The translations under genes and the position numbers were made by a program. Below, one piece after another: positions 1 to 24,937 of a stretch of DNA of 64,000 bases; the stretch's first letter is position 1; each line of letters begins with the position of its first letter. The DNA is from Planctomycetota bacterium. Its GTDB lineage: Bacteria; Planctomycetota; Planctomycetia; Pirellulales; Pirellulaceae. The DNA lies in contig JAPLNI010000027.1 of NCBI GenBank assembly GCA_026692865.1, positions 1 through 64,000 of the forward strand. Direction: 5' to 3'. The notes beneath the pieces are model-generated. The model was not told the origin of the DNA. It did not search any database and saw only the letters and a list, made by a program, of their open reading frames with translations.

Positions 1-445
1 GCCACAGTCAGGATTTTTGATAGCCTCAAGAGTCTTTGGCCCCTGTAACTCACTTCCACGAAAGGACGTCAAGCGAATAAACGATGCAGTGGAATCGGAA
101 ACATGCCCATTGGTTAGCGTGAAAGCACAGACAGGAACAGTAGCTTCAGCAAATCCTGAATACTCAAGCTGAACCAAACTAGTTAGCGAATGTTCCGTAA
201 TCATCCGCAGACGGACTTGCTCGTGGGTAGAAATAAACATCCAAACGAAAGGTGACATGAAACCTAGATTTCCGTCCACCTTCGCAAAGAAGCCATTGCG
301 TACAATAAAACATGAGAAGATATCTTTTTCGTATCCGTCAAAGACACTCTTTGTAAAATGCTTTAGTGGACCGTTTTGAAACTTGCGTCCCATATACGGT
401 GGATTGGCAACCACGGCATCGTATTGCCGTGCCAGCAAAATAGCT
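1..445 (-). pseudogene. pglX: PglX (BREX type 1 adenine methyltransferase), internal fragment
   Basis: Reading the minus strand from about 445 to the left edge gives one open frame with the N6-adenine methyltransferase motif NPPY (codons near 393-404) inside ARQYDAVVANPPYMG, followed by GFMSPFVWMFIS and RGSELQGPKTLEAI. These blocks are typical of PglX, the methyltransferase of BREX type 1, which marks host DNA and is needed for phage exclusion. There is no start codon: upstream the frame meets a TGA near 466-468 and sequence homologous to PglX begins only at about 440. The whole N-terminal part, which should precede NPPY by several hundred residues, is absent. The frame is open at base 1, so the 3' part may continue outside the window. 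It follows the brxC fragment directly, in normal BREX gene order, so a deletion joined the two genes. A generic type II methyltransferase is possible but less likely given the neighbour. Confidence 0.85.
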
Positions 446-452
446 TGTTGCA

Positions 453-1436
453 CTAGGCACCTGTATCAGCCAAGGACTTGTAGTTCGACAAAGAGGACTG
501 CCAATCACGGCTTTTACCTCTCAAGAACTCGAACAATCCATCTTCACTGTCTGGTCCCATTTCAGAGAAGACATCTTTGCCAAGGTTGCGGCATTGTTGC
601 AGAACCTTGGGGTCGGTCATCTTGCGACGGGCAACAGTGATGCTTCGTTGCTTGCGTGGTGCGGTGATATTCTCAAACACTTTGTCGATGGTGATCGGAG
701 CACCATTCATCATCAGTTGAATCTCGCCCAGCACTAACAAGCTGGAGATCAAGATCAGCACTTCATCATCAGGCCAGCCGTAGGGACGCTTGCCATACTT
801 TTCAAGCATGTCGAACAGAACAATCGGATGATTGGCTTTGTCTGAAAGCGTAATGAAGTCTCGGCACTCCTCCATCGCTTGCGTGTTCGCACCAGCGATT
901 GCAGTCTTTTGGAGATCATTGGACCTGAGAATTGCTTGAAGCTCCCGTTTCGGGTCGTCGCTGAATTTCCCGATGTAGGCCATCTTAGGGAAAGTGTTGT
1001 CGATCAGATATTCAAGAGCTTCGTCCAATGCCATCGATGGTGACGAAGATTTGATTTCGACCTTTTGTCCAGCAGCGAAATACAAAGCATCCGATACTAG
1101 TTGCCCAAGTACATTCTTGAGACGTTCCCTGCGTTCACGATTCTCTTCAGCCATTGAACGATGAATACGCTTAGTTGTTTCAGGCAGCGTATCATCGGAT
1201 TTGGTCCGAAGATATTTTTCCGTTTGGATGTATTGGCGTAGTTCACGCTCTAAGGTTGGGTCATCGTCCAGTTTTATAACGACCTGACCGCCATCCGTTG
1301 AGCTATCACGTTGGAATCGTGAGTTCTCCCAAAGCCCTGGTTCTGCTGTGGTCCACCTTAGATTCCGCCTTCGCTTCGGACCACCATCCAGAAGAACCCA
1401 ATCAAGGCGTTGCCAAGTAAAGCGAGAACAATCCAT
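453..1436 (-). pseudogene. brxC: BrxC (BREX P-loop ATPase), internal fragment
   Basis: The frame carries the conserved C-terminal portion of BrxC: TEKYLRTK, a stretch on a subunit-like helical region, KRPYGWPDDEVL, GEIQLMMNGAPI, ARRKMTDPKVL and WQSSLSNYKSLADTG. BrxC is a roughly 1,200-residue ATPase of BREX type 1. The N-terminal two thirds, with the Walker motifs, is missing: similarity begins around residue 30-45, and the first residues come from read-through of the 3' end of the neighbouring membrane-protein gene. The C-terminus is also cut, since intact BrxC continues for roughly another hundred residues after the LADTG region but here a TAG follows at once. Immediately after it the PglX fragment starts. 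I read this as a dead remnant left by two deletions. Annotation from the ATG at 1436 would be misleading. Confidence 0.85.
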
Positions 1437-1720
1437 ACTGCTTTTGATTTCACACTGTTGCTGAACACTGCATAAGCAATGAGTGAAAGGGCAACGAGAA
1501 AGGGTTCAATCTGCATTCGGACTAGTACGAATGCAACCGAAACAAATTTGACCATTCCCGTCCTTCCTAGCGCTGGGCCATCGATATGAAATAGCAAGAT
1601 CATGATGGCTGGAGTTAGCGTCAACAACAACACGCAAACTCCAAAGGTTGCGACACGCTGCGAAAGAACACTGTAAGTGGAATTCGAGTTTGGAGTTGGT
1701 TCGTGGATACTAGTATTCAT
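1358..1720 (-). CDS. Small membrane protein, unknown function
   Basis: About 120 residues with three to four predicted membrane segments (roughly residues 22-45, 60-80 and 95-115 counted from the ATG at 1720) and a short polar tail ending VVRSEGGI. A longer frame starts with TTG at 1798; the ATG at 1720 is preferred because it follows no better signal but avoids a polar, Cys-containing extension. Its 3' end overlaps the 5' end of the open frame holding the brxC fragment by about 80 bases, which marks the point where the brxC remnant was joined to unrelated DNA. I do not recognise the family. It could be an intact passenger gene of the island or a leftover of another element. Confidence 0.5.
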   Translation of the reverse strand: MNTSIHEPTPNSNSTYSVLSQRVATFGVCVLLLTLTPAIMILLFHIDGPALGRTGMVKFVSVAFVLVRMQIEPFLVALSLIAYAVFSNSVKSKAVWIVLALLGNALIGFFWMVVRSEGGI

Positions 1721-1957
1721 CTGATTGCGGATAAAAAAGAAACTGATTCTGTCATTCGTTTCAGCACAGCCTAGCAACAGGAGCTTGACCGGCTTCAAGC
1801 AGACTCAAATCCTATGCATCTCAAGGGATTCTTGGTAGTAGCAGAATCGCTCACCCAATTCATCACGGATTTGCATTTAAAGTTTAGATGATTCTGACTT
1901 TCGTTAATTACAATTAGATTTTCCCCGTGAGCAACATCCCTAAGAAAAAGAGAAACA

Positions 1958-2272
1958 ATGAAGAAGAAAGTAAACAAATCGGAACTGATCCGAGACATGG
2001 TTTCCAAGAACCCAACAGCAAAGGCTCCAGAAGTTCGAGCACTTTTGAAAAAAGATGGCGTTGCTGTATCCTTACCCCTCATCTATCAAGCGATGAGTAA
2101 AAGCAGTTCGCCGAAGACTAAGGCTACTGTTAAACGAGTCCGAAAGACTACTGCTGCTGTTGTTGCAAAAGCCTCCTCTACTAACGACTTGTTTGCCTCG
2201 ATGAAGTCCTTTGTCGAAGCAGCGGGCGGCTTGGACAAAGCCATTGAAATCTTGAGTATCTTCAAGAAGTAG
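1958..2272 (+). CDS. Small basic protein with HTH-like N-terminus
   Basis: A 104-residue, lysine-rich protein. The first 50 residues (KSELIRDMVSKNPTAKAPEV, then a predicted second helix pair around LLKKDGVAVSLPLIYQAMSK) resemble a compact helix-turn-helix unit found in small planctomycete proteins I know only as hypothetical. A Lys/Ala/Thr-rich linker (residues 50-75) leads to a C-terminal helix SFVEAAGGLDKAIEILSIF. Start ATG follows a purine-rich AAGAGAAACA. The layout (DNA-binding-like head, basic linker, short helical tail) suggests a nucleoid-associated or regulatory role, but that is inference only. It stands alone between the minus-strand membrane protein and the PEP-CTERM protease gene. 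Confidence 0.7.
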   Translation: MKKKVNKSELIRDMVSKNPTAKAPEVRALLKKDGVAVSLPLIYQAMSKSSSPKTKATVKRVRKTTAAVVAKASSTNDLFASMKSFVEAAGGLDKAIEILSIFKK

Positions 2273-2515
2273 TTTGATCAGGATGTAAAGATGGTGGCGT
2301 TTACAGCGTCACCACCCTGAACATTCAAGGTAGAATTGATTTGCCATCTTCCCTGTTCTCTCTGGAGGCGAATTGCAAGAAGCCCTTCAAGCATTTCTTT
2401 GTGCGTTCTCTTTCATAACCCAGAGGACCAAAGTAGACTTGAACATCTGCTTTTCCTCTTACACGTTTAACGCCGGATTGGGGCCGATTCCCAGTGCAAG
2501 AATAAGAATTCGGAC

Positions 2516-3418
2516 ATGAAGAAGATTTTTGGAGTTTGTTTGGCAGTGTTTTTGATGATTGCAGGATTTATGCAGGAGTCAAAAGCGGGATTGATATTTG
2601 GCGATGGGGCGGCGAATTTGGCGTTAGGGGCGAACTTTCCTTATGTGGGGTGGGTTGAATCGATTGACGGAGGAAATACGCAGTTTAATAGCAGCGGAGT
2701 TCTTATTGCTCCCAATTGGGTTTTGCTTAGTGGCCACCAAACTCTAGCGGTTGATAGCGATCTCAATACGAGACATGGTTCGCTGCGAGTTGGTTTCGGA
2801 TCAAATGTTTTTACTAATCGTGGTGAAAACCAAATAGCCTCAGAAGTCTTTCTTCATCCAGCCTACAAAGACCCTCAAATTCGTGACGGCGGTCTGAACT
2901 ATGACCTTGCCCTTCTATACTTCGAAAGTCCGTTTGCAACGATTGCTCCAGTTCAGTTTTACGTTGGAGGGATTGCGGTTGGTGATAGCTCGTCTATCGC
3001 AGGATATGGACTATTCCAAGATGTAAACGATCCGACTCATTCACAGACTTTAACAGGTAATCGTTATGCTGGTAATAACATAATTTCATCTATCAGTGTT
3101 CCACTTAGACCAAGCTATGTTCAAACTTATGTTTGTACAGATCAATTTAGTCCTGAATGTCAAATATCACCGCAAATGGGTGGTCGGGTTGGTGATTCAG
3201 GTGGGCCTTTAATTATTAACGGACAGGTTGCCGGAGTCCTTAGTAGGGTTGGTGGAGATACTAATTTTATTAACTTTACTCAGTACACACGTCTTGATAA
3301 CGATTGGATAAATTCCACCATCACTTCAGTACCTGAACCTGGAAGTATGCTACTGCTGGTGGTATGTGGCTCAATCTTCATGTGTAGAAGATATTCCCAA
3401 GCCAAACACTTGAAGTAG
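2516..3418 (+). CDS. PEP-CTERM trypsin-like serine protease (S1 family)
   Basis: A 300-residue exported protein. Residues 1-24 form a signal peptide ending QESKA. The S1 chymotrypsin-like triad is visible: His about 74 in LLSGHQT (degenerate relative to the usual TAAHC), Asp about 130 in YDLALL and Ser about 228 in GDSGGPL. Residues from about 272 form a PEP-CTERM sorting signal: VPEPGS, a hydrophobic helix and a basic end RRYSQ. Such proteins are processed by an exosortase and linked to the cell surface or exopolysaccharide in many Gram-negatives; no exosortase is in this window. The gene is visibly richer in A+T than the core genes further right, in keeping with an island location. Likely role: secreted protease of unknown target. 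Confidence 0.9.
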   Translation: MKKIFGVCLAVFLMIAGFMQESKAGLIFGDGAANLALGANFPYVGWVESIDGGNTQFNSSGVLIAPNWVLLSGHQTLAVDSDLNTRHGSLRVGFGSNVFTNRGENQIASEVFLHPAYKDPQIRDGGLNYDLALLYFESPFATIAPVQFYVGGIAVGDSSSIAGYGLFQDVNDPTHSQTLTGNRYAGNNIISSISVPLRPSYVQTYVCTDQFSPECQISPQMGGRVGDSGGPLIINGQVAGVLSRVGGDTNFINFTQYTRLDNDWINSTITSVPEPGSMLLLVVCGSIFMCRRYSQAKHLK

Positions 3419-3530
3419 AGAAGTTGGCGGGATAAAACCAATCTGTGAGCATGCTTGAAGCAAATTAGAATCATTTGCCAGCTTGCCTATAATGGTTGGC
3501 TGTGTGGGCTCTGACAGCGGTGATCTCTTC

Positions 3531-4340
3531 TCAATCCAAGAACGCTACGTTTCGCATCGCCTTCGATTCGTTCTCGGTGTTCATCACGACTTGATGCCAT
3601 CCGTGTAGCGTGATCGTTGCGTGATCTGCATGACGAACTCGACCTTTGACATAGACTCCGGGATTTCGACGCATCGTTCGCCATCCCCAAGTTCTTGCAT
3701 TTGGGTTACCAGACAAGATCGTTTTGTATTGGCTTTCCGTCACTCCGTTTGGATGGCGAGTGCAAACATGCACTGTTTCTCCACCAGTTCGATAGCAGAA
3801 TTCAGCCCAGTGCGGCTTTCCTCCGTTGCCTCGACGTAGTGGCTCGTTTCTCAAAACTAATGATTCATTGATTGAATATTCAACCGTTGGCAAAAAGAAC
3901 CATTCTCCTTGACGAATAAACGCCGAGTTCTTTCGGCTGTTGAGTGATTTCCCGGAAACACCTTGCCGAGCTACTGCACGTCGAACTTCCCGAGGTTGTA
4001 AAGCTTCTTTGGCTTGTCGCACAGTACCAACGGGTGCCGTTTCAGGAATGCCAGCTACGAACCAATGTCGCTCATCATGTCCGCATAAGAACTTGCTCTT
4101 TTCGTTATCCTCTCGAACTAGCAGGAGTAAATGACGATCCACCGGCTGAACATCTAAGACTTCAACAACAGGCTCAGAAGCAGTGACCTTCTGTACCTCA
4201 AAGTATTCGCCTCGTCGGTCTTCTGAGATGTCTAATTGGAGCGTCCCAGAAGTTCTGCTGAACCATCGAGGTGAGCGATCAACAACCTTCAGGCGGGCTC
4301 CTATTCGTTCAAACTTTTGACTTAGTAATGCAGTATCCAT
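3531..4340 (-). CDS. Conserved hypothetical protein, 269 residues
   Basis: A soluble protein without signal peptide or membrane segment, starting at the ATG at 4340. Notable stretches are CGHDERHWFVAGIPE near residues 87-100, a central Arg/Lys-rich part (AKEALQPREVRRAVARQG), RQGEWFFLP near 142-150 and, near the C-terminus, a His-rich block HADHATITLHGWHQV. I recall similar CGHDERHWFVA proteins as uncharacterised genes in diverse bacteria, but I cannot name a domain or function. The order of the conserved Cys/His residues could point to metal binding; that is a guess. It sits alone in the island between the protease gene and the exported phosphodiesterase gene, transcribed convergently with the former. 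Confidence 0.75.
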   Translation of the reverse strand: MDTALLSQKFERIGARLKVVDRSPRWFSRTSGTLQLDISEDRRGEYFEVQKVTASEPVVEVLDVQPVDRHLLLLVREDNEKSKFLCGHDERHWFVAGIPETAPVGTVRQAKEALQPREVRRAVARQGVSGKSLNSRKNSAFIRQGEWFFLPTVEYSINESLVLRNEPLRRGNGGKPHWAEFCYRTGGETVHVCTRHPNGVTESQYKTILSGNPNARTWGWRTMRRNPGVYVKGRVRHADHATITLHGWHQVVMNTENESKAMRNVAFLD

Positions 4341-4521
4341 GCCCCTGAAGACAACTGGATATTGAGAAGGTTCAGACCTTCCAATTTTTAATCTTAAAGA
4401 TTCATCCTTTTTTCAGCCAAAGATCATGCCTCAAATACCTGTTCGAATCTGTACCGATTCGTGAAAGTAGTGTCGAATCTGTTTATCACTGAGGTTCACA
4501 GAATTTTGTAGGATAACATTC

Positions 4522-5525: not shown

Positions 5526-5990
5526 ATGGTTCGAAAGATTTTTGCTCCAATTTTGCTTCTGTTGGTCACCGCTACTCTTCAGGCAGAAGAACTGCGGGGA
5601 AAAGTCGTAGGGATTTCAGACGGGGACACGATCACAGTGCTGGATGCCCAAAATGTCCAACACAAAATCCGACTTCAGGGTGTCGATGCTCCTGAAACGT
5701 CACAAGCATTCGGGGCACGGTGCAAGCAGCACCTTGGCGAAAAAATCTTCGGAAAGCAGGTCGTTGTGACTTGGACCGAGAAGGATCGCTACGACCGAAT
5801 CCTGGGCGAAGTCACTTTGGGCAACCGGAACATTGCCCTGGAAATGGTCCGGGACGGAGCAGCTTGGCACTACAAGCAATTTTCCAAATCAACGGAATTG
5901 GCCGAAGCTGAGGTCGAGGCAAGGAAGGCGAAAAAAGGGCTGTGGGTGGACAAAGAGCCAGTGCCGCCTTGGGAATTCAGAAAGAAGTAG
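5526..5990 (+). CDS. Exported thermonuclease (SNase family)
   Basis: About 154 residues, a typical length for a staphylococcal-nuclease-type enzyme. Residues 1-20 form a signal peptide ending LQAEE. The OB-fold core follows, with GKVVGISDGDTITVL, then IRLQGVDAPE (holding the equivalents of the catalytic Arg and metal-binding Asp), KDRYDRILGEV (second catalytic Arg) and a C-terminal GLWVDKEPVPPWEFR, the usual GLW...PWEWR ending. It should hydrolyse DNA and RNA in a calcium-dependent way outside the cytoplasm. A TTG six bases upstream is an alternative start; the ATG at 5526 gives the better signal peptide. It follows the EEP protein gene on the same strand after 134 bases. Confidence 0.9.
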   Translation: MVRKIFAPILLLLVTATLQAEELRGKVVGISDGDTITVLDAQNVQHKIRLQGVDAPETSQAFGARCKQHLGEKIFGKQVVVTWTEKDRYDRILGEVTLGNRNIALEMVRDGAAWHYKQFSKSTELAEAEVEARKAKKGLWVDKEPVPPWEFRKK

Positions 5991-6009
5991 AGGTGAGGAA
6001 AGCGATGAT

Positions 6010-6267
6010 TCAGCTAGACCTGCCGCTAACCCTCGTTTCCGCCCACGCTTCAACCAAGATGCGGTCGAACTGCCATTTTCCGGATTGGTCGGACCTTTGG
6101 ACTATGCATTTGCTGGGAATCGCTCCGAGGCGAGCTAACCGACAAACCAACGTTGAAGTACAGCCGAGTACGCTTGAAACGTACTCTGATCCTACGATTT
6201 TTTTCGGTATTTTCTGGAATTCTTCACCTGAATAGGTTCGATCAATCAACGCACAATTTGAAACCAT
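6010..6267 (-). CDS. Excisionase-like helix-turn-helix protein
   Basis: An 85-residue protein. Residues 29-78 read like an excisionase/MerR-type winged helix: VSSVLGCTSTLVCRLARLGA as the recognition helix region, IPSKCIVQ...GKWQFDR as the wing and VEAWAETR as the last helix. This W-F-D-R-x-x-L-E-A-W pattern is typical of small 'excisionase family DNA-binding' proteins that bend DNA for a phage or island integrase. The N-terminal 25 residues do not resemble the family and their start codon lies within the comM remnant, so the true start may be a later codon. It sits exactly at the junction of the accessory region with comM, where an excisionase of an integrated element would be expected. No integrase is seen in the window. 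It might be a degraded copy. Confidence 0.5.
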   Translation of the reverse strand: MVSNCALIDRTYSGEEFQKIPKKIVGSEYVSSVLGCTSTLVCRLARLGAIPSKCIVQRSDQSGKWQFDRILVEAWAETRVSGRSS

Positions 6268-6967
6268 CAGTGATGCAGGTTTGGTCGGCGGCGGAAATCC
6301 TCCGTCCCCGGGCGAAATCAGTCTTTCCCATCATGGTGTACTCTTCTTAGACGAGCTCCCTGAATTTAATCGCAGAACGCTCGAAGTCATGCGTCAGCCG
6401 CTCGAAGATCGTGTGGTGACGATTTCTCGAGCCTTGCGAAGCACTACTTTTCCTGCTGATTTTATGCTTGTCGCGGCTTTGAATCCATGTCCGTGCGGTT
6501 ACCGAACCGATCCACGACGTAGTTGTCATTGTGCGCCACCAGTGATCGAAAAGTATATGGGAAAAGTGAGCGGTCCTCTTTTGGATAGAATCGATATTCA
6601 TATCGAAGTTCCTGCAGTAGCCTTCAGTGAGCTTCAGTCGGGCGCACCAGGCACCAGCAGTAGCGAGATGCGCGAGCAAGTCATGCGGGCGCGAATGATT
6701 CAAGCGAAGCGCTTCGAAGGCAAATCCACTCGCGTTAACTCGCAACTCAATACTCGCCAGTTACGTGAGGTGTGTGTGCTCGGAACCACTGAGCGAAACA
6801 TGCTTCGCGATGCAGTCAATGACAATGGACTTTCCGCACGCGCCCATGACAAAATTCTAAGGCTCGCCAGAACAATCGCCGATTTGGATGATGCGGCCAA
6901 CATTAAAGCCGAACACATCCACGAAGCGATCAACTATCGAATACTCGACCGCGATATTTGGAAGTAA
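6263..6967 (+). pseudogene. comM: ComM/YifB (Mg-chelatase-like AAA+ ATPase), 3' half
   Basis: From TISDAGLVGGGNPPSPG onward the frame is an excellent match to the C-terminal half of ComM: the Walker B block GVLFLDELPEF, VAALNPCPCGY with the four-Cys zinc site CPCGY...CHC, LLDRIDIHIEV and the C-terminal helical lid ending AINYRILDRDIW. ComM is a hexameric helicase that promotes branch migration during natural transformation. The N-terminal half (about 260 residues with the Lon-protease-like domain and Walker A) is absent; upstream of TISDAG the expected FRSPHH is replaced by unrelated sequence. comM is a known insertion hotspot for islands, so the 5' half may lie to the left of the window. As seen here the product cannot bind ATP. 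Confidence 0.9.
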
Positions 6968-7036
6968 GACGAGCGGCAAGCTTCACCCTGCCCAAGAATC
7001 CATCCGAACTAATTTGTACAATCTAAAATATCCGAA

Positions 7037-7927
7037 CTAGGCTTTAAGGTAGGTCATACTTTTCGCGATGCTGTCGAGTGGAGACGGCGATTGATCTTGC
7101 TCTACGTGGCAGTTGCAGACACCGATCGATTGAGCTGCTTCGATTACTTTCGCCATGTTGATATTTCCAGAACCGACCTCTTTGAAGGCTTCGTTGGGGA
7201 CCTTGCCTTCGTCGAAGATGTTGGCGGTGCCGGGCAGCAAGTCTTTCAGATGGACTTGAGCGACACGGCCCTTTAGTTTTTGCAAAAGATCGACTGGATC
7301 ATGGCCACCGATAGCGGCCCAGAAGACATCGATCTCGAACTGCATCAATTCAGGCGAAAATCGCTCCACGAAGACGTCGAACCCAGTGGTTGGTTTTCCA
7401 GATTCTAGCTTCTGAAACTCGAAGGAATGGTGGTGATAACAAAGTTGAACGCCGGCTACTTTGCAAGCTTCGCCAGCCGCGTTGGATCGGTCGGCCATGG
7501 CTTTGTATTGATCAGCAGTCTCGCGGTGGCCTTTGCCGATGTACCCAAAAACGAGGTATCGAAGTTTGTGCTTGGCGGCTTTGTCGATGGTTGCTTGAAG
7601 TGTGGGGATATTTTTTGCGGACGGATTCCCAAGAATTTCCCAGCTAATGAAACTGCTAGTAACGTCAAGTCCGTGCTCTTTGGCGAGCGGAACCATCGTG
7701 TCGGCATCGTTGACGTCCATGAGTTCGACTTGGGCGTATCCAGCGTCCTTAACAGCTTGCAGTGTGGCTGTCGGCTTTGTTGCCATCTGATTGCGAAGAG
7801 TATAAAGCTGCAGCCCGATGTTTCCAGCGTATTTACCTGTAATCGCACCGAATGAACTGGCCGGTCGGATGGTGGTGAGAGCGGCTGCGGCGAATGTCGA
7901 TTGGAGGAGGAACCGTCGATTGATCAT
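7037..7927 (-). CDS. Tat-exported sugar phosphate isomerase/epimerase-type TIM-barrel protein
   Basis: About 296 residues from the ATG at 7927. The N-terminus MINRRFLLQSTFAAAALTT is a Tat-like signal (Arg pair followed by FLLQST). The rest is an AP-endonuclease-2/xylose-isomerase-like TIM barrel: GLQLYTLR, VKDAGYAQVELMDV, a YHHHSFEF block with likely metal or substrate His, Glu in MQFEIDVFWA, VAQVHLKDL and the closing CNCHVEQDQ. Planctomycetes encode many such exported proteins, presumably acting on sugars in the periplasm; the substrate cannot be read from sequence. The longer reading starting with TTG at 7954 is less likely. It stands alone, divergent from the ACP gene. Confidence 0.88.
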   Translation of the reverse strand: MINRRFLLQSTFAAAALTTIRPASSFGAITGKYAGNIGLQLYTLRNQMATKPTATLQAVKDAGYAQVELMDVNDADTMVPLAKEHGLDVTSSFISWEILGNPSAKNIPTLQATIDKAAKHKLRYLVFGYIGKGHRETADQYKAMADRSNAAGEACKVAGVQLCYHHHSFEFQKLESGKPTTGFDVFVERFSPELMQFEIDVFWAAIGGHDPVDLLQKLKGRVAQVHLKDLLPGTANIFDEGKVPNEAFKEVGSGNINMAKVIEAAQSIGVCNCHVEQDQSPSPLDSIAKSMTYLKA

Positions 7928-8115
7928 GGTCAAAGTCTCATTTCGAAGTTGCAAAATAGCGGTTTTTTTGGGGAGTAGGTCTACCCAATTTCTTGGAAAA
8001 CGAGTATCTAGCTACCCGTGGGAACCGATTGCGGTTCGTAGCGAGGATAGCTAACTTGTTTATCCGAAACTATTTAACACTATATTTGGTTGAGAAAGAA
8101 TAAGGGAAGTACGAC

Positions 8116-8499
8116 ATGTCAGCCATCGACGAAGAGGTTTTTTCCAAGGTTCAGTCCGCGTTAGTCGATGCTTTGGGGGTCGACGATGATGAAGTGACTC
8201 CAGAAGCGACGATGGTCGGAGATCTGGGTGCTGAGTCGATCGACTTCTTGGATATCGTTTTTAAGCTTGAGAAAGCCTTCAGCATCAAGATTCCTCGTGA
8301 GGAGCTATTTCCCGAAGACATCTTGACCAACGCCAATTACATCAAGGATGGAAAAGTTGCGGAAGCAGGCTTGGTCGAATTGAAGAAGCGAATGCCTTGG
8401 GCAGATCTTGCAAAGTTCGAGAGCAATCCACGCGTTCAAGATTTCGGCGATCTGCTTACGGTCGGCGACCTTTGCCGCTACGTTCAATCGAAGCTTTAG
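8116..8499 (+). CDS. Acyl carrier protein, long form
   Basis: A 127-residue acyl carrier protein, longer than the usual 75-80. The phosphopantetheine attachment serine is Ser41 in DLGAESIDFLD. The helices on either side are normal, but helix III is followed by an insert of about 40 residues (YIKDGKVAEAGLVELKKRMPWADL) before the last helix GDLLTVGDLCRYVQSKL. This form recurs in planctomycete clusters with a hot-dog dehydratase and ketosynthase. It is followed by the dehydratase gene after 24 bases and then by the ketosynthase, so the three likely work in one acyl-chain pathway. Start ATG follows AAGGGAAGTACGAC, a good ribosome binding site. Confidence 0.92.
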   Translation: MSAIDEEVFSKVQSALVDALGVDDDEVTPEATMVGDLGAESIDFLDIVFKLEKAFSIKIPREELFPEDILTNANYIKDGKVAEAGLVELKKRMPWADLAKFESNPRVQDFGDLLTVGDLCRYVQSKL

Positions 8500-8523
8500 T
8501 CCTCCCGAAAGCTTAAGAACAGC

Positions 8524-9060
8524 ATGCGATGGTTTTGGATCGATCGTTTTGACGAGTTTGTGCGGAACAAGCACGCGGTGACTATCAAGAATGTTACCTT
8601 CGGCGAAGAGCCGTTGGACGACTACATGATGGGTCATCCACACTATCCGCATTCGCTGGTGATCGAAGGAATGGCTCAGACGGGCGGCTTGCTCGTCGCC
8701 GAGCCATCGGGATTTCAGAAGCGTGTCGTCCTGGCGAAAATTGGCAAGGCCATCTTTCACCGACAAGCACTTCCTGGAGACCAGCTTCGACTTCAAGCAA
8801 ACATTCAGGATGTTCAAGATTCTGGAGCCGTTATTGCAGGTTCAGTAACGATCAATGGGGAGCTTATGGCGGACCTGGAGATCTGGTTTGCTTTCTTGGG
8901 CGATCGCTTTGGACAAGGTTCTCTGTTCCCGCCAGCCGAATTTTTGCGAGTTCTCCGCGTGCTACGTCTGTATGACGTGGCAGTCGATTCATCGGGGAAT
9001 CGAATCTCGCCGCCGGAAGAATTTTTGGCTGCGGAACGGGCTGAATTCGCTTCTGGATAG
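8524..9060 (+). CDS. FabZ/FabA-like beta-hydroxyacyl-ACP dehydratase
   Basis: A 178-residue hot-dog-fold protein. The active-site helix region GHPHYPHSLVIEGMAQTGG (residues 38-56) corresponds to the HFPxxPVxPGVLxxEAMAQ motif of FabZ, but the second Pro-Gly segment reads HSLVIEG, with His where FabZ has Pro-Gly. The later core strand VVLAKIGKAIFHRQALPGDQLRL is standard for FabZ. The C-terminal 50 residues (from about 125, rich in charged residues around SPPEEFLAAERAEF) extend beyond the family norm. Located between the ACP and ketosynthase genes, it probably dehydrates a 3-hydroxyacyl-ACP made by that pair. Whether it is catalytic or only a binding subunit is uncertain because the catalytic acid equivalent (Glu in IEGMAQ) is kept but its surroundings differ. 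Confidence 0.85.
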   Translation: MRWFWIDRFDEFVRNKHAVTIKNVTFGEEPLDDYMMGHPHYPHSLVIEGMAQTGGLLVAEPSGFQKRVVLAKIGKAIFHRQALPGDQLRLQANIQDVQDSGAVIAGSVTINGELMADLEIWFAFLGDRFGQGSLFPPAEFLRVLRVLRLYDVAVDSSGNRISPPEEFLAAERAEFASG

Positions 9061-9117
9061 CTTTGGATTTCTTCGTGCGAGAAGCGGACATCTGATCTCG
9101 GGTGCTGGCTTTTAATC

Positions 9118-9170
9118 TGTAGTAAAATCAACACTCGTGGCTAGCGCCATCGGCTCAGTGATGATCAGGT
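9118..9170 (-). repeat. Dispersed repeat family 1, partial copy
   Basis: On the minus strand this contains GAGCCGATGGCGCTAGCC followed by a diverged copy of the downstream part. It aligns without gaps over about 50 bases to the copies at 28388-28474 and 42044-42130. It lies between the dehydratase and the ketosynthase genes. Confidence 0.7.
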
Positions 9171-9286
9171 TAGATTGGGCGTGTGGTTGGAGCGATTCTG
9201 GCTTAGAATGGCTGGAAGTCTGACTGAATTTATTATTGCAATGCGGTTGGTGTCGCTTGCTCGGTAAGCTTTTGGAGTTCAATTGA

Positions 9287-10570
9287 ATGCGTCGACGTGT
9301 TGTTGTAACAGGTGTTGGATCGATCAATCCACTTGGAAACGATGTTCCAACCGTCTGGAAGGCGCTTCAGGAGAGCAAGAGTGGCGTTGCAGGTATTACG
9401 ATCTTCGATGCTTCCGGTTTTCCGACTACGATTGCCGCGGAGATCAAAGGCTGGGACGTTAGTTACGCTGGGGAAGAAATAGAAATTTGGAATCGACGTG
9501 GTCGTCATTCGCGATTCGCAATCGGAGCCGCCAAGCAAGCCGTCGAAGATTCCGGCTTTCTGGATCACCACAAAGATCCGACTCGAATCGGTGTCTACAT
9601 GGGAGCCGGAGAAGGTAGCCAGGACTTCGTGAAGTTCACAGCCACGATGGCTGCTGGATTTGCAGGTACTGACACGTTTGCAATGAACCCGATGATGGAA
9701 TATGGGCTAAAGAATCTGGATTCCATGCTTGAGCTTGAGCAAGAGCCCAATATGCCGGCTGCTCATTTGGGTGCTTACTTTAATGCCCAAGGCCCAAATG
9801 CAAATTGCTTGACCGCATGTGCTGCTAGTAGCCAGGCGATCGGCGAGGCAACTGAACTTATTCGAACAGGTGAAGCCGACGTCATGATCGCTGGCGGTGC
9901 TCACAGCATGATTCATCCGTTCGGGCTGACTGGCTTCAGTCTCCTAACGACTCTGTCAAAACGAAATGAAGAGCCAACGCGAGCGTCGCGCCCCTTTGAT
10001 CGTATGCGCGATGGCTTCGTGCTCGGCGAAGGTTCCGCGATTGTCATTTTGGAAGAGCTGGAAGCGGCTAAAAAGCGAGGCGCACACATCTATGGCGAGG
10101 TCCTTGGCTATGGCAGTACGGCAGACGCTTATCGAATCACTGACATTCATCCCGAAGGTCGCGGAGCAATTGGATGTATGCGAGCGGCCATCGCCGATGC
10201 AAAGCTGAATCCATCAGACATTGGCTATGTGAACGCTCACGGAACAAGTACGTCGGTTAATGATAAAACAGAAACCATGGCGTGTAGGTCGGTGTTTGGA
10301 GATCTCGCAAAGAAGGTTCCCGTATCTAGTACCAATAGCATGATGGGTCACTTGATTGCTGCAGCTGGTGTTACTGAGATGATCGTCTGCTTGATGGCGA
10401 TTCGAGATGGTGTACTTCCACCAACAATTAATCTCGAGAACCCAGATCCGGACTGCGATCTCGATTACATTCCTAACGAAGCTCGACAATCAAAAATCAA
10501 TGTCGCGCTCAACAATAGCTTTGGTTTCGGTGGCCAAAACGTGACGCTTGCTGTCGGTAAGATGCGGTAA
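9287..10570 (+). CDS. fabF: 3-oxoacyl-ACP synthase (FabF/KAS II family), Lys replaced by Asn
   Basis: A 427-residue ketosynthase. The N-terminus MRRRVVVTGVGSINPLG, the nucleophile Cys178 in LTACAASS, His318 in NAHGTSTS and His355 in MMGHL are all present. Counting residues, every one is offset by exactly 15 from E. coli FabF (Cys163, His303, His340). At the same offset, the invariant Lys335 of FabF (motif STKSMTGH) is Asn350 here (STNSMMGH). That lysine is known to matter for condensation in KAS I/II, so this enzyme may be altered in activity or act as a partner subunit. The rest, including the FGFGGQN glycine-rich end, is normal. It is the third gene of the ACP-dehydratase-KS cluster, 226 bases after the dehydratase. 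Confidence 0.92.
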   Translation: MRRRVVVTGVGSINPLGNDVPTVWKALQESKSGVAGITIFDASGFPTTIAAEIKGWDVSYAGEEIEIWNRRGRHSRFAIGAAKQAVEDSGFLDHHKDPTRIGVYMGAGEGSQDFVKFTATMAAGFAGTDTFAMNPMMEYGLKNLDSMLELEQEPNMPAAHLGAYFNAQGPNANCLTACAASSQAIGEATELIRTGEADVMIAGGAHSMIHPFGLTGFSLLTTLSKRNEEPTRASRPFDRMRDGFVLGEGSAIVILEELEAAKKRGAHIYGEVLGYGSTADAYRITDIHPEGRGAIGCMRAAIADAKLNPSDIGYVNAHGTSTSVNDKTETMACRSVFGDLAKKVPVSSTNSMMGHLIAAAGVTEMIVCLMAIRDGVLPPTINLENPDPDCDLDYIPNEARQSKINVALNNSFGFGGQNVTLAVGKMR

Positions 10571-12988: not shown

Positions 12989-13031
12989 TTAGGAATTCAA
13001 CTTCCTGCAGAATCGCGATTGCGAAACGAAA

Positions 13032-13056
13032 AAGGCCAGTAAATTCTTACTGGCCG
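13032..13056 (-). terminator. Rho-independent terminator of the NRDE gene
   Basis: Perfect 9-bp stem GGCCAGTAA / TTACTGGCC with an ATTC loop; read on the minus strand it is followed by CTTTTTCGTT. It lies 37 bases beyond the stop of the minus-strand NRDE gene. Confidence 0.75.
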
Positions 13057-13092
13057 TCATGGGTTGGTTTGGGGGAAGTAAAGCAGGTCGTG

Positions 13093-13869
13093 CTACGCGC
13101 TTACTGCTTTGCTTCGTGACTCACGCAAGCCGCGGCTGAGGATGTCTCGCAGGAGTGGTGAGTAATCCTCGTAACGTGATGCATCTGGCGAACCGTCGGA
13201 GTATTGCAAGATGGCGTCGCGTGGCTTGGTGCCGAGAGCAAGAAGTGTGCTGCTAACGGTACCGTACTCGTTACCACGAATGACCATGCTGGGTCGACCT
13301 GGTGGTGATGGAGTTCGCGAGAAGACACGGCTAGCAACCGCAAGGAACTTAACAGGCGAGTCCAACGTCTGAAGCGTCAACAATCGTTTCGCCATTTGAA
13401 CTCGCTCGTCCAATGGATCGTTAAGGTTGTGACTTCCAACAATGTTTAAGCCAGGCTCCAAATTGCGGACTTCATCAGCCATATCATGATGGAGAATGAA
13501 GCCAGATTCACGATCTGCGATGACGAGGTTGAAGCCTTCGAAGACATGCTCTCGCAATTCTTCGAGAGCCTTATCAAGACCCTTTCGTGCAGAAGATGCT
13601 CGGAGAATTTCCTTGCACAAGAGCCCTCGCGATTTGTTACCCGTTATGGGTTCCAACATTCGACGGTTACACAATCCAACAAACATTCCATTTTGATTGA
13701 CACCGATCCATGTTCCGCCAGCTCGTTGATCTCCTGGGCATAAGATTCTTGGTTTGCCAGAAAGAATCGCAGGAGATGATGACCGCCGATCGTAAAATTC
13801 CTCACGATTGGCAGCAACAAGGATGGGACTTTCCGGAACCAATCGATACTGAATGGCCAGCAAGCACAT
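13093..13869 (-). CDS. NRDE family protein (TANGO2-like)
   Basis: About 258 residues. It begins MCLLAIQYR: members of this family keep a Cys at position 2, and exposure of that Cys as an N-terminal nucleophile after Met removal is a known possibility. The start is therefore placed at the ATG at 13869 rather than at 13881. The family signature ANREE is at residues 20-24, followed by RAGGTWIGVNQNGMFVGLCNR, the GTWIG block found in all NRDE proteins, and GSHNLNDPLDERV. The protein resembles human TANGO2, linked to heme or lipid handling, but its reaction is not known. It is convergent with the protoporphyrinogen oxidase gene, which ends 105 bases away; that fits loosely with heme biology but proves nothing. 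Confidence 0.88.
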   Translation of the reverse strand: MCLLAIQYRLVPESPILVAANREEFYDRRSSSPAILSGKPRILCPGDQRAGGTWIGVNQNGMFVGLCNRRMLEPITGNKSRGLLCKEILRASSARKGLDKALEELREHVFEGFNLVIADRESGFILHHDMADEVRNLEPGLNIVGSHNLNDPLDERVQMAKRLLTLQTLDSPVKFLAVASRVFSRTPSPPGRPSMVIRGNEYGTVSSTLLALGTKPRDAILQYSDGSPDASRYEDYSPLLRDILSRGLRESRSKAVSA

Positions 13870-13881
13870 CGCGTATAACAA

Positions 13882-14228
13882 CTACACTTTCTATTCAGCG
13901 GTAAGTTGCCCGAACAAAGTTGTCTCTCCCACACCACGGTACCAAGCGCGGTAGGCAGGCTCGGGTCGTCACGTACTCTAATTTAACTTCTGGCCCCTCT
14001 CCAGGTCACCCCCTACTGGGTGGTTTTTGTTGTTTTCTCGCCCTAAGATGCTAAAGATGGGTTGGATATGCACAGTTGAAAGTCGTCGCGAAGGCGTTTT
14101 TGAGGCGGTGGGGAGCTCGAGTTCGACTTCCCGACCGCTAGACGGCTTGTATGGTATGAAACGAACCCACAGAATGCTTGTAGTTATTTTCGATTGAAGC
14201 AGTCTTTTCAAGGAATTTTGGGACAGTC
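13882..14228. other. Intergenic region with possible stem-loop
   Basis: About 350 bases with no gene I can support. Bases 14105-14138 form an imperfect stem (GCGGTGGGGAG against CTTCCCGACCGC) around a loop, roughly 90 bases before the transhydrogenase start. A weaker CACCC/GGGTG hairpin followed by GTTTTT lies near 14006-14030. Confidence 0.4.
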
Positions 14229-15611
14229 GTGGAACAGGAATTTGATGTTGTCGTGATTGGAACCGGTCCCGGGGGTGAGGGGGCTGCGATGCAATCGGCC
14301 AAGGGCGGAAGTCGCGTCGCCGTCGCGGAAGCCTACGACAAAATCGGTGGTGGATGTACCCATTGGGGCACTATTCCAAGCAAAGCCCTCCGTTATGCGA
14401 TCTATTCAATAACCGAGGCTCTCAACAACCCAATCATCCGTGATTTGGGCGTGCACGTGAATCCAACCTTTGCACAGCTTCGGTCGAGTAGTAAAGCAAT
14501 TATCTCGGCGCAAGTTCGGATGCGGCAGACATTCTACGAACGCAATAACGTTCCAATCTTTGGCGGACACGCTCGCTTCGCAGATGCCCACACAATCGAA
14601 GTCGGCGACGAACTGAGGCTCCACGGCAAGTCGATCGTAATTGCGACCGGTTCACGTCCGTTCCATCCCCCGGAAGTGGACTTCTCGCATCCTCGCATTT
14701 TCGACTCCGATACGATCCTGGACCTTTCCTTCAAGCCGCAGTCGATCACGATTTATGGTGCTGGTGTTATCGGTGTTGAGTACGCATCGATGTTTCGTAA
14801 CCTTGGGATCAAAGTCAACCTAGTTAACACTCGCAACAAGTTGCTAGAGTTTCTCGACGACGAAATCATCGACGCTTTGAGTTATCAAATGCGCGACTCT
14901 GGAGTGTTGATTCGACACAATGAAGCGTTCGCAAAAATCGAAGGACACGATGATGGCGTTGTGCTCTCGCTTCAAAGTGGCAAGCAAGTCAAGACGGATA
15001 TCTTGCTGTGGGCCAACGGTCGATCTGGAAACACTGAGAATCTTGGTCTCGAACGAATCGGAATCATCCCCAACTCACGAGGTGTTCTTGAGGTGAATGA
15101 CTGCTACCAAACTTCGGTGCCGCACATTTATGCTGTCGGTGATGTAGTTGGTTATCCTTCGCTGGCAAGTGCAGCTTACATGCAGGGCCGAGCTGCTGCC
15201 CAACACATCGAAGGGAATCACGATTATCGGTTGAGCATGGACGATATTCCGACAGGTATCTATACAAGCCCAGAAATCAGCTCCATCGGAAAATCGGAAC
15301 GTGAGCTTACGGAAGCCAAGATTCCTTACGAGGTCGGGCACTCGCAGTTTAAGAGTCTTGCTCGAGCCCAGATCACCGGTCGAGCTCAAGGGATGCTCAA
15401 ACTGCTCTTTCATCGTGACACGCGAGCAATTTTAGGCGTTCACTGTTTCGGGCCGAACGCTTCGGAAATTATCCACATTGGGCAGGCCGTCATGAAACAG
15501 CCACCTCCGAATAACACGCTTGACTACTTCATCAACACGACCTTCAACTACCCAACCATGGCCGAGGCCTATCGCGTTGCGGCCCTCAATGGATTTAACA
15601 GGCTCTTTTGA
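14229..15611 (+). CDS. sthA: Soluble NAD(P)+ transhydrogenase
   Basis: A 460-residue flavoprotein starting with GTG. The FAD-binding motif [10 protein letters not shown] is at residues 11-20. The redox-site region reads [16 protein letters not shown] at residues 41-56: one Cys (Cys43) is kept and the second is Thr, which is the diagnostic difference between SthA and disulfide reductases such as lipoamide dehydrogenase. A second nucleotide-binding motif [13 protein letters not shown] is near residue 177, and the dimerisation domain ends with the usual [16 protein letters not shown]. It transfers reducing equivalents between NADPH and NAD+ and in most bacteria runs in the NADPH-oxidising direction. 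It stands alone. Confidence 0.93.
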
Positions 15612-15644
15612 TTGAGTAGGAGTTTTGCATTGTGCAAATCAGAG

Positions 15645-15989
15645 TTAGCTTTCGGACAAAGCTTCCGAAGGTGTTTCGTCGATGTCCCGGCGATTTGACG
15701 AAGTCTTTGAACTCGGGAATCGGTTGGAATAGAATAGCCTTTCCCAGAGACTTGGTTTACGTAGGCGTGCGTCGCAAATCGGAACCGCGTGGACCTTGCC
15801 GCGTCGAGTCTCCAAAACGAGTTCCTGTTGGTTTCGAACTTCTAGAACAGCCCAATATTTATCGACTTCGTAAGAGTATAGTTCTCCATGCAGCGCGGGG
15901 CTCACGTTCTTTGCTCGTGGACCTGGCGAGGGGCTATGTTTTTCTCGAGTATAAACTACCCAATCACCCACTAAATAAGGTTTTGCCAT
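15645..15989 (-). CDS. Planctomycete conserved hypothetical protein
   Basis: About 114 residues from the ATG at 15989 (a longer frame from 16127 would add a hydrophobic segment and is less convincing). The start MAKPYLVGDWVVYTREKHSP is followed by SPGPRAKNVSPALHGELYSY, a block (YxxxKHSPxPGPRAxNVxPA..GExYxYxVDK) that I recall from several planctomycete genomes, always without function. The middle VDKYWAVLEVRNQQELVLETRRGK reads as a small beta-barrel. It is convergent with sthA. It is probably cytoplasmic; there is nothing to suggest an enzyme. Confidence 0.75.
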   Translation of the reverse strand: MAKPYLVGDWVVYTREKHSPSPGPRAKNVSPALHGELYSYEVDKYWAVLEVRNQQELVLETRRGKVHAVPICDARLRKPSLWERLFYSNRFPSSKTSSNRRDIDETPSEALSES

Positions 15990-16259
15990 TTCTTCGCGGA
16001 GCCTTTCACCGGGCCATGGAGACGAGCGTTCGAATTTGAAGAGGATGGAGAGGAATAGGTAAAATAGAATACATTTCTGATTCATCAATCCGGCAATGCA
16101 TTCTGGATCGAATCGGCAGAAAATCAAAGATCAACTTTGGCAATTCAATCAAACACGCGAAAATTGATGGAATCTTAACTGATTTAGGGGTTGGATCACC
16201 GTTCAAAAGCGAGTTCAGTCACGCAGAAATTTAGCCAGCATTCCGAAAATCCGCCGCCT

Positions 16260-16760
16260 ATGAACGAACAAGTCAATTTGAGCCCGTCCATTTCGATTCT
16301 CTTTGTATGTCTAGGAAACATCTGCCGATCGCCCGCCGCGGAGGGTGTGATGCGAGCTTTGACGTCCGCAGCCAATATGCCCGAGTCGATCCATATCGAA
16401 TCGGCTGGTACTGGCGGTTACCACGATGGGAAGTTGCCCGACTCAAGAATGCGAGGTGCGGCAAAAAAGCGAGGCTACCCGTTAGATAGTCGTGCACAAA
16501 CAATCGCTCTTAAAGATTTCGAAAGATTCGATCTGATCATCGCCATGGACCGAGACAACGTTCAAGCGATTCATCGCGTCGGCAATCCAATTCCAGGCCA
16601 GCTAAAGTTGCTCAGTGACTATCTGGGAAATGACTGGCCGACCGATGTGCCTGATCCATACTATGGTGGCGAAGACGGCTTCGAATATGTGCTCGACATG
16701 TTAGAAGCCGCTTGCCCAAAAATCCTCGAAGAAATTCAGCGAGAATTTCGTGCGAGATAA
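16260..16760 (+). CDS. Low-molecular-weight protein tyrosine phosphatase
   Basis: About 166 residues from the ATG at 16260. The P-loop is C17-LGNIC-R23-S near the N-terminus, immediately after ISILFV, and the general-acid aspartate is in DVPDPYYGG. The order and spacing match LMW-PTP/arsenate reductase-like phosphatases. It hydrolyses phosphotyrosine esters and, in bacteria, often reverses autophosphorylation of BY-kinases that drive exopolysaccharide export; this genome has such a kinase at 30754-33186, so that is a plausible, untested substrate. A frame starting at 16191 would add an unsupported 23-residue extension. The two cyclophilin genes follow convergently. Confidence 0.92.
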   Translation: MNEQVNLSPSISILFVCLGNICRSPAAEGVMRALTSAANMPESIHIESAGTGGYHDGKLPDSRMRGAAKKRGYPLDSRAQTIALKDFERFDLIIAMDRDNVQAIHRVGNPIPGQLKLLSDYLGNDWPTDVPDPYYGGEDGFEYVLDMLEAACPKILEEIQREFRAR

Positions 16761-16763
16761 AAA

Positions 16764-17267
16764 TTACTCGGCGACGACGATTGTCACTTCAAGGATTTCG
16801 ATCGGCTTGACTGGCACGTCTCCGTGACCACCTTTGTTGCCGGTGTCGACTGTACCAATCTCGTCGACCACGTCGAATCCATCGGTGACTTCGCCGAAGA
16901 CTGCATATCCGACTCCATCGGATGATTGATCGCGATTGAGGAATCCATTGTCTTTGGTGTTGATAAAGAACTGAGACGTAGCGCTATCGGGTACGCTCGT
17001 TCGAGCCATCGCGATCGAGTACTTCTTGTTCTTCAGACCATTGCCGCCTTCGTTTTTAATACCGCCTCGAGTCTTCTTTTGTTTCATGTCAGCCGTCATA
17101 CCGCCGCACTGAATCATGAAGCCATCGATGACACGGTGGAAGATCGTTCCTGCGTAATGGCCATCATTGGCGTATTGCACGAAATTAGCGACCGAGACTG
17201 GTGCTTTTGCTTCGTCGAGGGAAAGAGTAATGTCACCCATGGATGTCTTGAGAATCGCAGTTGTCAC
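16764..17267 (-). CDS. Cytoplasmic cyclophilin-type peptidyl-prolyl isomerase
   Basis: A 167-residue protein with the complete small bacterial cyclophilin domain: GDITLSLDEAKAPVSVANFV, GTIFHRVIDGFMIQCGG (active-site Arg in FHRVI), KNEGGNGLKNKKYSIAMART, SQFFINTKDN (Phe/Gln of the substrate pocket) and AVFGEVTDGFDVVDEI. No signal peptide, so it acts in the cytosol on proline bonds during folding. It ends only three bases from the convergent phosphatase gene. Its paralogue with a signal peptide lies 56 bases upstream on the same strand, so the two are probably a tandem duplication and may share a transcript. Confidence 0.93.
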   Translation of the reverse strand: MTTAILKTSMGDITLSLDEAKAPVSVANFVQYANDGHYAGTIFHRVIDGFMIQCGGMTADMKQKKTRGGIKNEGGNGLKNKKYSIAMARTSVPDSATSQFFINTKDNGFLNRDQSSDGVGYAVFGEVTDGFDVVDEIGTVDTGNKGGHGDVPVKPIEILEVTIVVAE

Positions 17268-17323
17268 GAATATGCTTTCAATAAGTAGGAAATTGTCAGT
17301 TCAGGTTTTAATTGACGTGTGGG

Positions 17324-17998
17324 TTACGGTTGGGCTACAGGTGTACTTGCAACCGGAACAACGACTTGGATTTTTTGAATAACGACTGGCGTCACCGGTT
17401 CGCTGGGGCCATCACCAGGAGCACCGTTAGAAGACGGCTTCACAGGTACCGAGGCGATCTTGTCAACGACTTCAATCCCTTTTACTACCTTTGCGAAAAC
17501 TGCGTAACCGAATCCATCGGGCGAGTTCTTTCGATCCAGGAAGTTGTTGTTGCTAGTGTTGATAAAAAATTGAGCAGTCGCGCTGTTGGGATCACCTGTT
17601 CGAGCCATAGCGACGGTGTACCGTTGGTTGCTGATGGCATTTCCTGCTTCGTTCTTAATGCCGGCACCAGTGCGTTTCTCGCGTCCAGGACTCTTAACAT
17701 CGAACCCACCACCTTGAATCATGAAGTCCTTGATAACTCGATGGAAAATGGTCCCTTCGTAGTGACCTTTTTCGACGTAATCCAGAAAGTTTTTGACTGA
17801 GATTGGAGCTTTTTCTGTCTCGAGAAGCAGAACAATGTTACCTTGATTGGTGATGATTTCAACAAATGTCCGCGGGTCGCTGACTGGTGGTGTAGCGGAA
17901 GCGGGAGCCGAAGTTGCAGTGCTCTCCTGAGCAAACATGTGATCGCATCCGAACAAGCTCGCAGAGATTGCGAGGATCCAAAAAAACTGGCGGCACAT
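17324..17998 (-). CDS. Exported cyclophilin-type peptidyl-prolyl isomerase
   Basis: A 224-residue protein with an N-terminal hydrophobic signal MCRQFFWILAISASLFGCDH; the Cys following LFG could be lipidated, although the box is not canonical. A Ser/Thr/Pro/Ala-rich linker (residues 24-42) follows, then a full cyclophilin domain with VKNFLDYVEKGHYEGTIFHR, FMIQGGGFD, RYTVAMARTGDPNS, QFFINTSNNN and AVFAKVVKGIEVVDKI. It should catalyse proline isomerisation in the periplasm or at a membrane. The C-terminal tail PVVIQKIQVVVPVASTPVAQP is longer than in the cytosolic paralogue next door. Confidence 0.92.
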   Translation of the reverse strand: MCRQFFWILAISASLFGCDHMFAQESTATSAPASATPPVSDPRTFVEIITNQGNIVLLLETEKAPISVKNFLDYVEKGHYEGTIFHRVIKDFMIQGGGFDVKSPGREKRTGAGIKNEAGNAISNQRYTVAMARTGDPNSATAQFFINTSNNNFLDRKNSPDGFGYAVFAKVVKGIEVVDKIASVPVKPSSNGAPGDGPSEPVTPVVIQKIQVVVPVASTPVAQP

Positions 17999-18311
17999 AG
18001 TTCAATATTCCTTAACTGATCCAACATATTTTTCAAATTTCAACAGGCATGACACCCCGATTGCAGTCGTGAGAGTCCTTACGCCGCTTACATTGTAGGC
18101 TGCCCCGCAAAACCGTCAAAGGCGTCGTTCTCGTCCATTTCAGCGGCGTTGTGCCTGGAGCAGAACGAAACGCAAGGCGGCAAACCTTTAGCGAAAGATA
18201 CTGCCTTAGATTATCCTGTGTCTCTGTTGTTGCGAGTTCCTTCCGGCAAGCATGGCATTGAAAGAAGTGCCAAAAAGCCTAGGCAATATGTCTCTGAGAA
18301 CTGAGAAACCC

Positions 18312-23237: not shown

Positions 23238-24937
<1,700 letters not shown>

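What the first reader, a model, noticed from the sequence alone, without database searches (positions are those of the whole stretch)
1..1345. Relic of a BREX type 1 phage-defence operon: brxC fragment joined to pglX fragment
Seen: on the minus strand a frame with strong BrxC C-terminal motifs (KRPYGWP, GEIQLM, ARRKM) ends at 453, and within about 10 bases a frame with the PglX NPPY motif begins. Known: BREX type 1 operons are ordered brxA-brxB-brxC-pglX-pglZ-brxL. Inferred: one deletion removed the BrxC C-terminus, the intergenic DNA and the N-terminal part of PglX; a second removed the BrxC N-terminus with its ATPase site. The relic shows that this lineage once had BREX and lost it, while flanking island genes stayed.
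Basis: partly seen in the sequence, partly recalled or inferred. Interest (0 to 1): 0.7.

Follow-up and report, generated by a model that had tools for sequence, protein, structure and literature searches.

The report
Broken remnant of a BREX operon
The start of this bacterial contig holds two internal pieces of a known phage-defence operon, apparently fused by a deletion; it looks like an ordinary wreck of a BREX system, and one of its apparent cuts is only the end of the assembled contig.

Summary
Minus strand 459-1349 encodes the middle of BrxC; 1-456 encodes the middle of a BREX-1 PglX, starting within about 3 bases. A planctomycete of another family (85% identical BrxC) and an Acinetobacter plasmid have full-length brxC followed by pglX, so an internal deletion of about 2.4-3.3 kb explains the join. 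A relative with the same right flank, without BREX in the 18.8 kb held, puts the other edge near 1345-1349.

Corrections: the window starts at its contig's first base, so PglX's far cut is an assembly end. The BrxC piece is central (residues 634-930 of 1193). Its closest homologue is in another family, so recent horizontal arrival is likelier than ancestral BREX. No other brxC, pglZ, brxL or brxB was found in the 99.4%-complete assembly, but they could lie in a gap. No stop in 449 codons: the break is recent.

Parallels: one-contig genome G199 has its own brxC|pglX join, and G038 a collapsed brxC/pglZ|brxL operon. Recent loss by deletion is the best reading; a chimera at the contig tip is the main rival. 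Known kind, low interest.

The parts
1..456 (-). Internal fragment of BREX-1 PglX methyltransferase (about residues 471-622 of a 1161-aa PglX), with NPPY but without the SAM-binding DPACGSG motif; open at the contig edge
   Evidence: NF033452 E 9e-36; 63% over 152 aa to intact PglX; motif positions in two references; contig starts at base 1
453..459 (-). Join brxC|pglX, in different frames, at most about 3 bases of uncertain origin
   Evidence: By-eye comparison with L028 brxC and L069/L064 pglX DNA as proxies
459..1349 (-). Internal fragment of brxC (L028 BrxC residues 634-930 of 1193): part of the alpha+beta domain, the second wHTH, start of the helical region; no ATPase, no C-terminal end
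   Evidence: NF033441 E 1.4e-55; 85% aa and 75.5% nt identity to L028; residues 634-930, Walker A at 75
1345..1349 (.). Second join: brxC codon about 634 next to flanking DNA that a relative without BREX shares
   Evidence: L036 aligns from 1348 on, L028 up to 1349; no BREX gene of L028 matches L036
1358..1798 (-). Flanking gene, 146-aa protein (hydrophobic by eye), conserved in L036 (85% aa)
1958..2272 (+). Flanking gene, 104-aa protein, conserved in L036 (72%) and in same-genus G001 (92%), there without BREX beside it

Best explanation
This is the non-functional remnant of a BREX type 1 operon that a planctomycete probably acquired horizontally and lost recently. One illegitimate deletion of about 2.4-3.3 kb removed roughly the last quarter of brxC, what lay between the genes (a DUF429-type gene in the closest relative) and about the first 470 codons of pglX. 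A second break left out brxA, brxB and about the first 633 codons of brxC. The piece cannot give a working BrxC or PglX: BrxC lacks its AAA+ ATPase and its C-terminal part, and PglX its SAM-binding motif. Shown: the identity of both pieces, both joins in the assembly, and no other brxC, pglZ, brxL or brxB match in it. Inferred: that deletions in the cell made the joins, that they are recent, and that the operon came horizontally.
For: Profile and pairwise matches. Same strand, order and orientation as in the operons L063, L064 and L069 and in the part of one in L028, as a deletion predicts. At most about 3 uncertain bases at the join. Right edge set by L036 and L028. In G000 one BrxC match only; PglX: this one and two weak hits on one C63 methylase-like ORF, which the six BREX proteins of L069 do not match; no PglZ, controls ringing in 4 of 14 genomes; no BrxL, where 3 of the 5 genomes given matched. 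pN 0.092 against pS 0.789 to L028, and no stop in 449 codons. Parallels: G199, one contig, with brxC to residue 1072 then pglX from 359 within about 12 bases; G038:C6 with a brxC C-terminal piece and pglZ 1-289 running into brxL 386-679.
Against: Both joins lie in the last 1.35 kb of a contig, where assemblies are least reliable, and no reads are at hand. The rest of the operon could lie in a gap or an unbinned contig. L028's own contig also ends inside pglX, so breaks there may be an assembly habit. No intact operon at this very site was found in a relative. The deleted DNA itself is unknown, so microhomology was judged from relatives at about 75% DNA identity. The BrxB search had no positive control and BrxA was not searched.
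Confidence: 0.72

Rival explanations
1. Library or assembly chimera at the contig tip: the cell, or a co-assembled strain, carries an intact BREX operon and the two joins are artefacts.
For: Both joins are within 1.35 kb of the contig end; partial BrxC hits in other genomes do sit at contig ends, e.g. G082:C78, G057:C39, G353:C109 and G443:C254; frames are undecayed.
Against: A k-mer assembler needs a shared word to misjoin (general knowledge); the brxC|pglX join shows at most about 3 uncertain bases, and window 1-1348 shares no 17-mer with the window from 1401 on. The pieces are in native order and orientation. A join of the same kind lies inside a one-contig genome. No second brxC in the assembly.
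Confidence: 0.16
2. The piece arrived already broken: a short brxC-pglX fragment was captured next to the conserved flank, so this cell line never had a working BREX.
For: Nearest homologue in another family; no BrxC match in same-genus G001; L036 has the flank with a different gene in place of BREX; no brxB, pglZ or brxL found in the genome.
Against: The contig end hides the other boundary. Only chance-level repeats in window 1-3000 and no tRNA in the window; transposases were not searched for.
Confidence: 0.1
3. The 327-aa ORF 453-1436 is a functional truncated BrxC, for example a DNA-binding decoy built on the second wHTH domain.
For: The frame is open and holds a whole wHTH domain (126 of 126 profile positions).
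Against: Its first 29 codons precede the BrxC homology and overlap the end of the flanking gene on the same strand in another frame; the neighbouring domains are cut; no hit listed or 40 is this fused protein (L036 matches residues 1-32 alone).
Confidence: 0.02

Closest known systems
BREX type 1 operon (brxA-brxB-brxC-pglX-pglZ-brxL)
   Same: Both pieces belong to BREX-1 families, in operon order and orientation
   Different: Only the middle of brxC and the middle of pglX are present; no pglZ, brxL or brxB found in the assembly
Planctomycetota MAG contig VGYC01000006.1 (L028, lying inside G351:C6)
   Same: BrxC 85% identical over the 297 shared residues
   Different: Full-length brxC after brxA- and brxB-like genes, then a DUF429-type gene and pglX, cut by its own contig end
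Collapsed operon in G199 (L101)
   Same: brxC joined to the middle of pglX
   Different: Other breakpoints (brxC 1072 | pglX 359); brxA and brxB still there; matches spread over several frames, which could partly be sequencing error
Truncated pglX and brxL in Ca. Regnicoccus frigidus MAGs (PMC9716671, passages seen)
   Same: Partial BREX-1 genes in environmental MAGs, varying within the population
   Different: No brxC|pglX join is mentioned in the passages seen

Membership tests
BREX type 1 system, functional | Full-length BrxC with AAA+ ATPase (Walker A) | tested here: not met
   Fragment spans L028 BrxC 634-930; Walker A is at 75; no other BrxC match in G000
BREX type 1 system, functional | Full-length PglX with SAM-binding and NPPY motifs | tested here: not met
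   NPPY present; DPACGSG (residue 312 of L069 PglX) would lie before the join; what follows residue 622 is beyond the contig end
BREX type 1 system, functional | PglZ and BrxL | tested here: not met
   No match in the 72-contig assembly; a gap at the contig end remains possible
BREX type 1 system, functional | BrxA and BrxB | tested here: inconclusive
   BrxB of L028: no match, but no positive control in that search; BrxA not searched in G000
Remnant of a BREX type 1 operon | Pieces homologous to BREX-1 BrxC and PglX, in native order | tested here: met
Remnant of a BREX type 1 operon | Joins present in the cell's DNA, not in the assembly only | not testable with these tools
   No reads available

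The most novel reading that the evidence does not exclude
A deletion that joins late brxC to mid pglX is a recurrent way out of BREX: it removes the restriction partner and the methyltransferase in one step, so no harmful half-working intermediate has to be survived (in Salmonella StySA a pglX deletion could not be recovered in three allelic contexts; passage of PMC9009780 seen). G000 and G199 would be two independent cases with different breakpoints.
Probability: 0.1. Interest if true: 0.45.

Novelty: new member of a known kind. Interest (0 to 1): 0.15.

Why it matters
It is an undecayed example of a defence operon apparently lost by internal deletion, with a second example of the same kind of join in a one-contig genome, so routes of BREX loss could be counted across planctomycetes. 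It also warns that partial BREX genes at contig ends should not be read as relics by themselves.

Tried and rejected
Shorter native BrxC family: rejected, because the 85% homologue is full length. Second BREX copy in the genome: no other BrxC. Viral carrier: no stretch of the viral contigs matched the peptide patterns, which reach close relatives only. Repeats and tRNA at the border: only chance-level repeats, no tRNA; transposases not searched. A BrxC break near model position 920 shared with G046:C3 and G082:C78: dropped, since L028 BrxC hardly matches those loci. G443:C42 (model 622-891, with stops) looked like a twin but matched neither L028 nor L069 BrxC; G443:C254 has brxA, brxB and the first 88 residues of a brxC 68% identical to L028's, cut by its contig end, so a same-family relative closer than 56% may exist. 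Housekeeping yardstick for horizontal transfer: ArgG was useless, since four other genomes of the family have only 34-37% matches; no second yardstick was run. BrxC tree: 32 reference loci given, a selection of those held; 11 dropped before alignment (2 without a match, 9 matching over too short a span); 21 kept plus the window; support at the deeper nodes beside the window was low (0.56-0.69). L028 and L071 in it are the same genome, G351. DNA search of 147 relatives with window 1-4500: 20 of 147 matched, but only 2 candidates per genome were scored, and in the BREX part the sole listed match outside G000 was G066. Papers: searches (0 papers; 2,517, 25 listed; 12; 24, 15 listed; 7) gave no title or abstract start naming a brxC-pglX join; beyond listings I saw only passages of three papers. 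This is no claim of absence from print.

Full report
Observation. The window is contig C27 of genome G000 (5.55 Mb, 72 contigs, 99.4% complete) from its first base. On the minus strand, ORF 453-1436 matches BrxC (NF033441 positions 626-919 of 1173, E 1.4e-55) and frame 1-453 matches BREX-1 PglX (NF033452 499-649 of 1210, E 9e-36), both below the whole-protein cut-offs as fragments must be; Pfam and PADLOC agree. The PglX frame aligns at 63% over 152 residues to an annotated intact PglX in a complete BREX operon on an Acinetobacter plasmid.

What the pieces are. The closest BrxC found is 85% identical over 297 residues, in L028, a planctomycete MAG contig with brxA- and brxB-like genes, full-length brxC, a DUF429-type gene (weak Pfam match) and pglX up to the contig end. 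The window piece is residues 634-930 of its 1193; Walker A is at 75. In the Acinetobacter BrxC described in PMC13326643 (passages seen) the corresponding region falls in the central part with an alpha+beta domain and a second wHTH; the ATPase and the C-terminal dimerization domain are outside it. The PglX piece has NPPY; the SAM motif of two reference PglX proteins lies before the join.

Joins. brxC homology ends at about 459 and pglX homology begins at about 456, with at most about 3 bases of uncertain origin, judged by eye from relatives. Compared with the plasmid operon the missing stretch is 2,356 bases; with L028 about 3.3 kb, an estimate because its pglX is cut. The right edge lies at about 1345-1349: L028 aligns up to 1349, and L036, a planctomycete contig in whose 18.8 kb none of five L028 BREX-locus proteins matched, aligns from 1348 through 2402 at 83%. 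In L036 the next gene is DinB-like (named from its sequence by recall), and that stretch has no DNA match in G000. The left side has no boundary: the contig ends.

Rest of the genome. One BrxC match; no other BREX-1 PglX apart from two weak hits on one C63 ORF; no PglZ; no BrxL (where 3 of 5 genomes matched; G000 and G001 did not); no BrxB (no control). BrxA was not searched. A working system is therefore unlikely, but the missing half of pglX and the genes after it could lie in an assembly gap.

Age and origin. Against L028, pS is 0.789 (too high for a dS estimate) and pN 0.092 over 297 codons, and 449 codons hold no stop. Under neutral drift of 5% the chance of no stop is 0.06, and 0.001 with frameshifts at an assumed 0.1 indel per substitution. 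The break is recent, or an artefact. In a tree of 21 references the piece groups (support 1.0) with L028 and L071, which are one genome, G351, of another family; the best same-family BrxC given is 56% identical. The one same-genus genome found, G001 (87% complete), has no BrxC match. Horizontal acquisition is the likelier history, but not proved: the tree used a selection of loci, a cut brxC start in same-family G443 is 68% identical to L028's, and the one housekeeping yardstick tried failed.

Is it real? Against an artefact: native order and orientation, no long shared word seen at the join, no 17-mer shared between window 1-1348 and the window from 1401 on, and parallels. G199 (one contig) carries brxA, brxB and brxC to residue 1072, followed within about 12 bases by pglX from residue 359; the matches change frame several times, which could partly be sequencing error, and no pglZ or brxL match lies in the 19.9 kb fetched. 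G038:C6, inside a 617-kb contig, carries a brxC C-terminal piece, a GmrSD-type gene and pglZ 1-289 running into brxL 386-679, while its contig C5 has full-length BrxC and BrxL matches. For an artefact: both joins sit at the contig tip. BrxC matches were found in 21 of 147 relatives (15 over the family cut-off) and in 55 of 397 genomes of the class (45 over the cut-off); at least four of the partial hits end at contig ends, so a cut at a contig end alone means nothing.

Verdict. A recent, partly visible wreck of a BREX type 1 operon, probably horizontally acquired; a known kind of event. Partial BREX genes in environmental MAGs are in print (PMC9716671, passages), and mutant brxC and pglZ, with growth effects and unrecoverable pglX deletions, are described for Salmonella StySA (PMC9009780, passages).

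Noticed in passing
window 3531-4340 (-): A 269-aa gene without a Pfam match has an 83%-identical copy at G000:C25 and DNA matches in many of the relatives searched, one of them about 8 kb from the BREX brxC in G046:C5.
   Followed up: partly
L061 (G038:C6), 5695-9994: A second collapsed BREX operon: brxC C-terminal piece, GmrSD-type gene, then pglZ 1-289 running into brxL 386-679 in another frame.
   Followed up: partly
L101 (G199:C1), about 13010-18020: A BREX-1 operon in several frames, with brxC joined to mid pglX, in a one-contig genome.
   Followed up: partly
window 23238-24572 (-): ArgG-like protein of 444 aa (named by recall), 98% identical in same-genus G001 but only 34-37% to the best match in the four other family genomes searched, suggesting a replaced gene.
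   Followed up: no
window 1348-1384: A 7-base inverted repeat sits in the flank at the brxC border; seen by eye, may be chance.
   Followed up: no
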